Shown here piece by piece: positions 49,665 through 50,971 of a stretch of DNA of 64,000 nt (position 1 is its first letter; every line of letters begins with the position of its first letter). Position numbers and translations under genes: made by a program. This DNA is from Candidatus Heimdallarchaeota archaeon (GTDB taxonomy: Archaea; Asgardarchaeota; Heimdallarchaeia; JABLTI01): contig JAGXNT010000095.1 in NCBI GenBank assembly GCA_019894765.1, positions 1-64,000 on the forward strand, read 5' to 3'. Below the pieces are notes generated by a model, which was given only the letters and a program-made list of their open reading frames with translations, was not told the DNA's origin and did no database searches.

Positions 49665-50021
49665 ATGATACCTAAAGTTATGTTGAGGAAACTCTACAAA
49701 AAAGGCAGTTTGAAGCAAGACGAAAATGAAATTACTTTCATATTGCAGAATGAAATTTATCCTGCAACTATTGTTGGATTGGACCCTATAAAGATAAATG
49801 AGCAAGATTTTGATATTGATAAAATAAAAGTTCTAATCAATGATGATGTCGTTGTTAATTTAGCGGAAGTTACAAAGGAAAATCCCTTCAAGTTAACAAA
49901 AGGTGATACTTTTACTTTCAGGATAGAAGGCAATATAGATCCTGGGAAACACAAAATTGATTTTAGTTTTCTCACAAAAGAAGCTGGAAAAATAGCGTTC
50001 GATGTAGAAGAAGAATTCTAA
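49665..50021 (+). CDS. Conserved archaeal small beta-rich protein, function unknown
   Basis: A 118-residue soluble protein beginning MIPKVMLRKLYKKGSLK and followed by alternating strands (ITFILQNEIYPATIVGLDPI, DTFTFRIEG). The pattern matches a family of short archaeal proteins that I recall only as uncharacterised, sometimes mis-named after HMG-CoA reductase. No catalytic motif is seen. GGAG stands 10 bases before the ATG. It converges on the 5S-like RNA, ending 23 bp from its 3' end. Confidence 0.65.
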   Translation: MIPKVMLRKLYKKGSLKQDENEITFILQNEIYPATIVGLDPIKINEQDFDIDKIKVLINDDVVVNLAEVTKENPFKLTKGDTFTFRIEGNIDPGKHKIDFSFLTKEAGKIAFDVEEEF

Positions 50022-50043: not shown

Positions 50044-50200
50044 GGCACGAAACCCACCATTTCCGGGATCGGACGAGTCCGGGTGTTACCCTCCAGCTTT
50101 GACCGCGTCGCAACGCAGCTTAATGATGTTCCCGAACGATCGCTCAGATCAGTAATTACCACTACGTTTGAAGGCTTAACTTCCGGTGATGAGTTTCTGC
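50044..50200 (-). rRNA. 5S ribosomal RNA in circularly permuted order
   Basis: This GC-rich island in AT-rich surroundings carries both halves of an archaeal 5S rRNA in reverse order. Reading the minus strand: the 3' half (50186-50113) begins CCGGAAGTTAAGCC, as in loop B/helix III of 5S, and ends ATCATTAAGCTGCG. The 5' half (50108-50061) includes GGTAACACCCGGACTC, as at the start of 5S. The two are joined by GCTGCGT-TGCG-ACGCGGT (50119-50102), a 7-bp helix I closed by a TGCG tetraloop. Helix II is CCTTCA/TGGAGG (50174-50169 with 50095-50090). Helix IV is TAGTGGT/ATCATTA (50164-50158 with 50127-50121). The new ends pair over 14 bp (50200-50187 with 50059-50045, one bulged G). Helix III's 3' strand occurs twice, as expected from an ancestral tandem duplication. 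Confidence 0.85.
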
Positions 50201-50225
50201 GTATTCTTTCGTTTCTTCTTTCGCT

Positions 50226-50231
50226 TTTAAA
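50226..50231 (-). promoter_or_regulatory. TATA box of the permuted 5S RNA gene
   Basis: TTTAAA on the minus strand (in the run CTTTAAAAG) with an upstream purine-rich GTAAA ends 26 bp before position 50200, the 5' end predicted from base pairing. This is the standard archaeal TATA-to-start distance and supports an independent transcript that begins at the permuted 5' end. Confidence 0.7.
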
Positions 50232-50301
50232 GTTTACCGTTTTTATGGTATATCAGCTCATCGTCAAAGTATTGTGAAAAAAATTGGAAAAGAGAAGTAG
50301 G

Positions 50302-50551: not shown

Positions 50552-50971
50552 CTAAATGAATAATTGTATGTCACTGTCTGCAGCAATATCTAAAAAGCCT
50601 GCTGCGCCCATGTAACCTGCTAATCCATCAATTAGTTGTTTCTTTTTAACCATCATAATGTCCATGGTTGCAGTACAAGCCCAAAGTCTTACTTTGCCTG
50701 TTTCCATAACTGCTTCTAAAAGATCTGGTAATGAGGCCATACCGGTTCGCTTAATCATTAGTCGCATCATAGGGGTCATTAGATACCATGAGCCACTAAG
50801 CTTTGCTTTTTTGAGGCCTTTCTTCTTGAGAAGATTGAGTCCCCAAAAAGTAAAGAATATGTCAACCTCAAAATCGCTAGCCCCAGCCGCAGCTGCTAAC
50901 ATTAATGGTGGATAGGCTTTGTCGAGTGTACCTGAGTGCACTACTATAGCCATTTTTTTTACGTCTGCCAT
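50552..50971 (-). CDS. DsrE2-like protein
   Basis: A 139-residue DsrE/DsrF/DrsH-like (DsrE2) protein. It starts KKMAIVVHSGTLDKAYPPLMLAAAAGA, has FFTFWGLNLLKKKG and ends its core with LWACTATMDIM, where the Cys is the candidate sulfur carrier. DsrE2 proteins pair with TusA in persulfide transfer; the gene directly before tusA fits that. Some relatives are membrane-bound; here the ends of the chain are only moderately hydrophobic. Confidence 0.85.
   Translation of the reverse strand: MADVKKMAIVVHSGTLDKAYPPLMLAAAAGASDFEVDIFFTFWGLNLLKKKGLKKAKLSGSWYLMTPMMRLMIKRTGMASLPDLLEAVMETGKVRLWACTATMDIMMVKKKQLIDGLAGYMGAAGFLDIAADSDIQLFI

What the first reader, a model, noticed from the sequence alone, without database searches (positions are those of the whole stretch)
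50044..50200. Circularly permuted 5S ribosomal RNA gene
Seen: on the minus strand the 3' half of a 5S rRNA (CCGGAAGTTAAGCC ... ATCATTAAGCTGCG) precedes the 5' half (GCGGTCAAAGCTGG ... GGTAACACCCGGACTC). The natural ends are joined as GCTGCGT-TGCG-ACGCGGT, a 7-bp helix I capped by a UNCG-type tetraloop. New termini pair over 14 bp. Helices II and IV form at their proper places. A TATA box ends 26 bp upstream of the predicted 5' end and U-tracts follow the 3' end. Known: permuted 5S rRNAs occur in some mitochondria (for example brown algae and oomycetes), and permuted SRP and tRNA genes exist in a few archaea and algae; I know of no cellular archaeal 5S like this. Inferred: it arose by tandem duplication of a 5S gene, since helix III's 3' strand (CCCGGAA) remains in both parts. 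A ribosome built with it would have its 5S termini in the loop C/helix III region instead of helix I.
Basis: partly seen in the sequence, partly recalled or inferred. Interest (0 to 1): 0.96.

Follow-up and report, generated by a model that had tools for sequence, protein, structure and literature searches.

The report
Permuted, circular 5S rRNA in Asgards
In this window, and in 137 of 227 genomes searched from the same archaeal phylum (Asgard archaea), the gene for the small 5S ribosomal RNA matches a form written with its second half before its first half, and its flanks are predicted to let the tRNA-splicing enzymes join the two ends, so that these ribosomes would carry a ring-shaped 5S RNA, which would explain why the gene has gone unrecognised.

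Summary
On the minus strand (50197-50049) a 5S rRNA gene has its 3' half before its 5' half, with helix I closed as a UGCG-capped hairpin. A profile trained only on normal-order Asgard 5S gives the rejoined circle 59.0 bits, against 26.3 in gene order. It is not a local oddity: 137 of 227 genomes of the phylum match a permuted model, 64 have an Rfam 5S over the cut-off, and the five overlaps are explained.

I differ on the mechanism. The new termini can form a bulge-helix-bulge-like motif (4-bp helix, 3-nt bulges, long outer stem) whose predicted cuts rejoin the canonical sequence (CCCGGAA|GTTAAGCC) as a 120-nt circle; 26 normal Asgard 5S are 118-121 nt. In relatives the motif covaries (9 of 9 pairs), recurs at other breakpoints and sits as an intron in a normal-order 5S. 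EndA and RtcB genes are present in relatives. So the RNA is probably circularised, like Thermoproteus SRP RNA, rather than linear with displaced ends. No transcript data were available, the window's own genome is not held, and some clades fit the motif poorly.

The parts
50225..50238 (-). Conserved promoter block GGTAAACTTTAAAA; TATA-like box TTTAAAA at 50231-50225
   Evidence: CGG.AAACTTTAAAA invariant in 8 of 8 aligned Heimdall loci within otherwise variable upstream DNA; best TATA-like match lies 41-50 nt before the hit start in 22 of the 73 permuted loci with a match of 7 or 8 of 8, no shuffle control. A start site about 50203-50200 is inferred.
50187..50197 (-). Outer helix h, 5' strand (GAAACTCATCA) in the transcript leader
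   Evidence: Pairs with 50049-50059; 100% of cells paired in 8 loci, 2 pairs with double changes
50183..50186 (-). H, 5' strand of the predicted 4-bp BHB central helix (CCGG)
   Evidence: Upstream strand covaries with the strand at 50063-50066 across relatives. In the window itself CCGG is self-complementary and the minimum-energy fold pairs it with 50079-50082 instead
50180..50182 (-). Predicted bulge 1 (AAG); predicted cut between 50181 and 50180
   Evidence: Register test; the cut position within the bulge is the recalled EndA rule
50113..50180 (-). 3' half of the 5S rRNA (GTTAAGCC...GCTGCGT)
50109..50112 (-). UGCG tetraloop that joins the former 3' and 5' ends and caps helix I (arms 50119-50113 and 50108-50102)
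   Evidence: Compensatory changes in L009; 21 of 32 loci have a four-base loop by the automatic count, 15 of them UNCG
50061..50108 (-). 5' half of the 5S rRNA (ACGCGGTC...GATCCCGGAA)
50063..50066 (-). H', 3' strand of the predicted central helix; the same bases form helix III (with 50079-50082) in the mature RNA
   Evidence: Helix III 100% paired in 32 loci, 4 of 4 pairs with double changes; H covariation
50060..50062 (-). Predicted bulge 2 (AAA); predicted cut between 50061 and 50060
50049..50059 (-). Outer helix h, 3' strand (TGGTGGGTTTC) in the transcript trailer
50061..50180 (-). Predicted 120-nt circular 5S rRNA after joining 50061 to 50180
   Evidence: Length 120 against 118-121 in 26 normal-order Asgard 5S; 59.0 bits with their HMM

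Best explanation
This is a circularly permuted 5S rRNA gene whose transcript is likely cut by the archaeal tRNA-splicing endonuclease at a bulge-helix-bulge-like motif predicted to form from its own leader and trailer, and likely sealed by RtcB into a 120-nt circular 5S rRNA. Shown by sequence: the half order, the closed helix I, conservation of the 5S helices, the covarying leader-trailer motif of relatives, and the canonical sequence produced by rejoining at it. Inferred: that transcription starts about 20 nt before the 3' half, that EndA cuts between the second and third bulge bases, that RtcB joins the ends, and that the ring enters the 50S subunit unopened, with helix III forming once the leader strand is gone. 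Permuted and normal-order genes probably interconvert through tandem duplication, because a tandem pair of permuted genes contains a normal-order gene with a BHB intron and the reverse.
For: Rejoined sequence is a 5S: 59.0 bits with an HMM of 26 normal-order Asgard 5S, 26.3 in gene order; over 50 loci mean 50.7 against 22.4; best of 1000 shuffles 4.9; circle length median 121, normal 118-121. Motif: in the 50 of 59 loci tested, 31 have all 9 of the H+h pairs and 45 at least 7 at the canonical-join register; at ten other offsets 0-1 have 9 of 9; 300 rounds of shuffled upstreams give mean 1.86 (most 6) with at least 7 and mean 0.013 with 9 of 9. Over 37 distinct motif rows 90.1% of cells paired (57.5% shuffled), 9 of 9 pairs with double changes, slid registers 23-40%. 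Nine of 13 distinct upstream/downstream H combinations pair fully, mean 2.8 when dealt at random, 0 of 5000 deals as high. The same 3-4-3 motif (CACG/CGTG) sits as a hairpin intron in a normal-order 5S of G020 (read by eye). In the L062 group the motif has moved into loop C and still rejoins canonical ACCCGGTC|CCATCCGAACC (found automatically in L080 only; read by eye for L062, L065, L067, L078). An EndA-family gene in 58 of 58 genomes of the class of G004, two matches in 47; RtcB in 75 of 83 of the class of G122 (not searched in the class of G004). Distribution nearly exclusive: 137 permuted, 64 Rfam-normal, 5 both and explained.
Against: No RNA data: neither circle nor junction has been seen. 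In the window's own minimum-energy fold the leader CCGG pairs with helix III's 5' strand and H forms 0 of 4 pairs; only relatives with non-palindromic strands tell the two pairings apart. The far flank of the motif is weak: beyond bulge 1 the strand enters the 5S body, so this is a relaxed (hBH-like) motif, not a full hBHBh'. Four of 13 H combinations do not pair fully (CCGG/ACGG in 4 loci, CCGA/CCGG, GGGA/CCCG, GGGA/TAAC). In the Heimdallarchaeum-like group (L057, L074, L089, L092, L100, L102, L108, L134, L235) the pairs next to H are 0-4 of 5 and in those measured 24-29 nt separate outer stem and H; L115 of the same group fits 9 of 9. The G040-G047 group fits poorly: L069 and L090 rejoin one base long, L157, L158, L159 and L239 have H 2-3 of 4. 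L066, L154 and L238 also fit poorly, and 13 of 79 distinct cores were not evaluated, among them a clade (L056, L086, L101) without the usual AAGTT context. The register (k = 0 or 1) was chosen to maximise pairing, which the shuffles do not repeat. 31 of 227 genomes show neither form. PMC12918454 says, of studies of pure cultures, that 16S and 23S but not 5S are circularised (passage).
Confidence: 0.78

Rival explanations
1. The mature 5S is linear and permuted: helix I stays closed and the 14-bp terminal helix stays on the RNA in the ribosome.
For: Terminal helix is stable and conserved; in the window's minimum-energy fold it stacks on the leader strand paired with helix III's 5' strand; permuted mitochondrial 5S of brown algae are known (citing passage, PMC11528492).
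Against: Does not explain why the extra upstream strand keeps complementarity to helix III's 3' strand, why the pairing register restores the canonical join in most tested loci, why the breakpoint can move with the motif (L062 group), or the same motif as an intron in G020.
Confidence: 0.12
2. The precursor is circularised at the BHB but later reopened in the helix I loop, giving a conventional linear 5S, as in algal permuted tRNAs.
For: Permuted pre-tRNAs go through a circle and are then opened (PMC3978253, passages; PMC7758197, passages).
Against: The former ends are joined by compact loops (four bases in 21 of 32 loci by the automatic count, 15 UNCG) on helices of 6-13 bp where the count worked, leaving little to trim.
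Confidence: 0.18
3. The locus is a degenerate 5S remnant or an assembly artefact of tandem 5S copies, and a normal 5S does the work.
For: Tandem normal 5S in two Bacillus contigs also match the search pattern.
Against: 24 of 27 5S pairs with compensatory changes in 32 loci; 137 of 227 genomes match, with no genome's best E between 2.5e-13 and 4.6e-9; in the single-contig genome G015 the two weak Rfam hits at E up to 1 are its two permuted copies.
Confidence: 0.02

Closest known systems
Permuted SRP RNA gene of Thermoproteus tenax (Plagens et al. 2015, PMC4731332; abstract and passages seen)
   Same: A 'missing' universal RNA; gene halves swapped; short leader after a TATA box; leader and trailer form a BHB motif; there shown to be cut by the tRNA splicing endonuclease and to yield a circular RNA
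   Different: Here the RNA is 5S rRNA, the arrangement spans much of a phylum with several breakpoints, and circularisation is predicted, not shown
Circularly permuted tRNA genes of algae and one archaeon (PMC3978253, PMC7758197, passages)
   Same: 3' half before 5' half, BHB at the new termini, circular intermediate
   Different: tRNAs are reopened at the acceptor ends; here the old ends are fused by a short loop with little to trim
Permuted mitochondrial 5S rRNA of brown algae (Valach et al. 2014; not held; known here through a citing passage in PMC11528492, and recall)
   Same: 5S with halves swapped
   Different: Organellar; no splicing motif is described in what I saw; whether the two arrangements share an origin was not tested
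Archaeal 16S/23S circularisation and permuted 23S of Pyrococcus furiosus (PMC12918454, PMC7758197, passages)
   Same: BHB, EndA and ligation act on rRNA precursors; circular 23S reported within archaeal ribosomes
   Different: The genes are in normal order; 5S is said not to take part
Ordinary 5S rRNA, RF00001
   Same: Helices I-V and 120-nt length of the rejoined RNA
   Different: Gene order and predicted topology; the linear model stays under its cut-off

Membership tests
5S ribosomal RNA | Helices I, II, III, IV, V | tested here: met
   93.3% of cells paired, 24 of 27 pairs with double changes over 32 loci; in the window's single-sequence fold only I and II appear
5S ribosomal RNA | Sequence similarity to 5S when the order is restored | tested here: met
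   59.0 bits rejoined, 26.3 in gene order, shuffles up to 4.9
5S ribosomal RNA | Rfam RF00001 gathering score in gene order | tested here: not met
   16.4 and 13.8 bits, cut-off 38; expected for a permuted gene, so filed as a permuted 5S, not as a linear RF00001 member
5S ribosomal RNA | Incorporation into the large subunit | not testable with these tools
   No RNA or ribosome data; the 5S-binding protein family uL5 (PF00281) is found in 212 of 227 genomes
BHB substrate of EndA | 4-bp helix with 3-nt bulges | tested here: met
   31 of 50 tested loci, the window among them, have all H and h pairs possible at the canonical register; definition from PMC7714728. Not the window's minimum-energy pairing
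BHB substrate of EndA | Outer helices on both sides (canonical hBHBh') | tested here: not met
   Only the leader-trailer side is a long helix; the other flank was read by eye and is weak; relaxed form
BHB substrate of EndA | Cleavage and ligation | not testable with these tools
   Needs RNA
Permuted, circularised ncRNA gene (T. tenax SRP type) | Swapped halves with BHB at termini | tested here: met
Permuted, circularised ncRNA gene (T. tenax SRP type) | Circular RNA observed | not testable with these tools
   No reads available
Mitochondrial permuted 5S | Encoded in an organelle genome | tested here: not met
   Neighbours include ribosomal protein L44e, Cys-tRNA synthetase and DsrE genes; near-identical loci lie in MAG contigs titled Asgard or Heimdallarchaeota

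The most novel reading that the evidence does not exclude
Most Asgard archaea, Heimdallarchaeia included, run their ribosomes on an endless, covalently closed 5S rRNA made by the tRNA-splicing machinery from a permuted gene; the phylum has repeatedly moved the permutation point, and other lineages carry an intron-bearing (G020) or plain normal-order 5S instead.
Probability: 0.6. Interest if true: 0.97.

Novelty: new variant of a known kind. Interest (0 to 1): 0.95.

Why it matters
It would account for a printed gap: the authors of the closed Heimdallarchaeum genomes wrote that 5S genes could not be predicted by existing HMMs (PMC8813620, passage), and a single-contig genome of matching size here (G015, 3,326,783 bp; identity inferred from size alone) carries two permuted copies. 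It would extend BHB splicing to 5S rRNA and predict a ribosome whose 5S has no ends. It also offers a rare, discrete genomic character on the Asgard tree: eukaryotic 5S is in normal order (recalled), so where permuted, intron-bearing and normal forms fall bears on how Heimdall-type archaea relate to eukaryotes (inference). Annotation pipelines need a permuted model; one built here (R1) left no genome between E 2.5e-13 and 4.6e-9.

Tried and rejected
Rejected: tRNA/tmRNA (none in the window); other Rfam families (all sub-threshold); tandem normal 5S as the source of the pattern (true for the two Bacillus hits L002 and L010; the three Treponema hits L005, L006, L011 are a normal 5S followed by a short ACACCCGTTC stretch). 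A copy-remnant origin for the upstream CCGG was rejected because relatives have complements. G048:C310, G110:C68 and G134:C263 were set aside as bacterial-looking 5S on contaminant contigs, judged by eye from sequence. My first loop count failed and was replaced, which itself mis-starts six rows with a gap at the first helix I column (counted there as 15-nt loops). mis-anchored L055 and L073, which fit 9 of 9. The d = 8 control keeps 41 of 50 at 7 or more pairs, and d = 10 keeps 22, because they slide along the same stem; only the 9-of-9 count (1 and 0 of 50) discriminates. A rooted tree with outgroups was not made; the tree of 70 genomes (3 of 73 dropped for coverage) is midpoint-rooted from one operon and no support values were printed. 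Literature: no permuted or circular 5S of a cellular genome in the listings (titles and abstract starts; open-licence PMC only, no preprints).

Full report
What is there. On the minus strand of the window, between a DsrE-family gene (50552-50971) and a small gene for a lone HMG-CoA_red_N domain (49665-50021), lies a gene with the 3' half of a 5S rRNA, then a UGCG loop, then the 5' half. Rfam in gene order sees only two weak pieces (16.4 and 13.8 bits, cut-off 38). The half-order pattern occurs once in the window and in none of 100 shuffles.

It is conserved. The pattern found 12 stretches in the collection of 84,980 species genomes: 7 contigs titled Asgard or Heimdallarchaeota, each with a 111-bp span, 2 Bacillus tandem 5S and 3 Treponema stretches. 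In the 8 aligned sequences the promoter block and the whole RNA are conserved, the flanks much less. The terminal helix and closed helix I are 100% paired, with 4 of 18 pairs changed on both sides. Both neighbour genes recur: DsrE in 8 and the small gene in 8 of the 11 loci compared. None of the 7 genomes has an RF00001 match over the cut-off. The window's own genome is not held, so exclusion of a second 5S rests on relatives.

It is widespread. RF00001 reached its cut-off in 64 of the 227 genomes held for the phylum of G004 (G004 is the genome of L007, titled Heimdallarchaeota; that the phylum is the Asgard one is inferred from this). Of 60 regions fetched around weak hits, 51 showed the halves in reversed order by motif, 1 was called normal (L052, in fact another breakpoint) and 8 were not classed. 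A covariance model of the permuted core (R1; 32 loci, which match by construction) found 137 of 227 genomes at E 1e-12 or better, with no best E between 2.5e-13 and 4.6e-9. In most of the 137 the order was not inspected one by one; it rests on the model. Both kinds were scored in 5 genomes: three are bacterial-looking 5S on contaminant contigs (by eye), one looks like a permuted unit read across a tandem or contig end (G037), one is an intron-bearing normal-order gene (G020). Neither form was found in 31 (18 of 33 left-over or special genomes searched again at E up to 10 gave matches, none a new strong one). Completeness is not told for these genomes. By class: 54 of 58 permuted in the class of G004, 63 of 83 in that of G122 (6 normal after removing two contaminants, 14 neither), 20 of 86 in the rest (53 normal, 13 neither) (classes).

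It is a 5S. The 27 pairs of the mature 5S fold are paired in 93.3% of cells over 32 loci (66.9% shuffled; 37-51% with slid partners), 24 of 27 with double changes. An HMM built from 26 normal-order Asgard 5S scores the rejoined, circularised sequences at a mean of 50.7 bits against 22.4 in gene order (50 loci), 1000 shuffles at most 4.9; L090 gains nothing. The window gives 59.0 against 26.3.

How it probably matures. Leader and trailer form a long stem (h). Next to it a 4-base strand of the leader (H) can pair with the 3' strand of helix III, leaving three bases on each side: h-CCGG-AAG / CCGG-AAA-h in the window. This is the bulge-helix-bulge shape (four-base helix, two 3-nt bulges; PMC7714728; PMC6379350; passages). 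Cutting after the second bulge base (recalled rule) and joining gives CCCGGAA|GTTAAGCC, the canonical 5S sequence, as a 120-nt ring. Over 50 tested loci (59 minus 5 of another breakpoint and 4 without anchor; several are close relatives), 31 have all nine pairs at this register and 45 at least seven; ten other offsets give 0 or 1 with nine. A wider set of 79 distinct cores (2 of them Bacillus) gave 66 evaluated, 46 with a full H and 32 with nine of nine; the two Bacillus controls score 2 of 4 and 2 of 5. On 37 distinct motif rows the pairs covary strongly. The mature 5S has no evident use for the H strand, yet in 9 of 13 distinct combinations it is fully complementary, among them CTGG/CCAG, CTGG/TCAG, CGTG/CACG, CCGA/TCGG, CGGG/CCTG, CAGG/CCTG.

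Independent variants point the same way. In L062, L065, L067, L078 and L080 the break lies in loop C, with CTGG-AA|C and CCGG-TC|A; joining gives ACCCGGTC|CCATCC, which L063 and L091 have uninterrupted (automatic only for L080). In G084 the break lies in loop B with CCGA-AAA / TCGG-AAA (by eye). In G020 a normal-order 5S with open helix I has a hairpin CAGTCT-ATCG-AGACTG between CACG-GAA and CGTG-AAA: the same motif as an intron (by eye). All 58 genomes of the class of G004 have an EndA-family match and 47 have two, as expected of heterotetrameric enzymes, which accept relaxed motifs (PMC4731332, PMC7714728, passages); RtcB is in 75 of 83 of the class of G122 and was not searched in the class of G004.

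What speaks against it, and limits. No RNA was seen. In the window's minimum-energy fold the leader CCGG pairs with helix III's 5' strand, not with the trailer, and helices III, IV and V are absent; because CCGG is self-complementary the window cannot decide between these pairings, relatives must. The motif is one-sided (relaxed). Four of 13 H combinations do not pair fully. The Heimdallarchaeum-like group mostly has an insertion between h and H; the G040-G047 group fits poorly; L066, L154 and L238 too; 13 cores were not evaluated. MK-D1 is reported to have one 5S gene (PMC11316595, passage), and two other Asgard MAGs a 5S (PMC9723677, passages); their arrangement was not checked.

Evolution. 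In a one-operon tree of 70 genomes, normal-order 5S falls in four groups: G177-G179, G183-G217 (next to the Heimdall-like permuted block under the midpoint root), G066-G070 beside permuted G173/G174, and G086-G090 beside the Loki-like permuted block (root arbitrary, no support printed). More than one change of state is needed. A tandem copy of a permuted gene contains a normal-order gene with a BHB intron, and the reverse, so tandem duplication could move between states; a tandem permuted pair exists (G061). This is inference.

Known relatives. The closest precedent is the Thermoproteus tenax SRP RNA: missing gene, permuted, leader plus trailer forming a BHB, cut by the tRNA endonuclease, circular RNA shown (PMC4731332, abstract and passages). 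Permuted tRNAs (PMC3978253, passages) and permuted brown-algal mitochondrial 5S (cited in PMC11528492, passage) are the other two. The listings showed no report of a permuted or circular 5S in a cellular genome.

Noticed in passing
L141 (G020:C117:8277-8414, minus): Normal-order 5S with open helix I and a hairpin intron-like insertion between CACGGAA and CGTGAAAGTT, the same site as the permutation point in relatives.
   Followed up: partly
L148 (G084:C63:7464-7700, minus): 5S permuted at a different point (loop B / helix II), again with a CCGA-AAA / TCGG-AAA motif at the ends.
   Followed up: partly
L234 (G212:C15:39893-40044, minus): Normal-order 5S with an insertion of about 33 nt after GGAAGTTAA, possibly another intron.
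   Followed up: no
L150 (G108), L156 (G101), L237 (G128): Permuted 5S genes with an additional stem-loop of about 30 nt inside loop C (CCGAA...GAACCCGG); may be a second intron.
   Followed up: no
L155 (G160:C277:9390-9511, minus): Permuted 5S with a stem-loop insertion after ACTACCC, absent in its relative L107.
   Followed up: no
L146 (G061:C510), L242 and L259 (G037), L046 (G087:C1): Tandem permuted pair in G061; several permuted copies at contig ends in G037, perhaps an array; three normal-order copies about 375 bp apart in G087.
   Followed up: partly
G048:C310, G110:C68, G134:C263 (L142, L143, L144): Bacterial-looking 5S genes on contigs of Asgard MAGs, probably contamination.
   Followed up: partly
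G160:C300:3321-4655 (RtcB) and G040:C46:13305-13439 (EndA fragment): One in-frame TGA inside a full-length RtcB match and one TAG inside an EndA match; recoded or broken genes.
   Followed up: no
window 49665-50021 (+): Stand-alone 118-aa protein matching only the N-terminal domain of HMG-CoA reductase (PF25653), found beside the 5S in 8 of 11 loci compared.
   Followed up: partly
L005, L006, L011 (Treponema MAG contigs): A short TTTACACCCGTTC stretch follows the 3' end of a normal 5S in all three; looks like a repeated 5S fragment.
   Followed up: no
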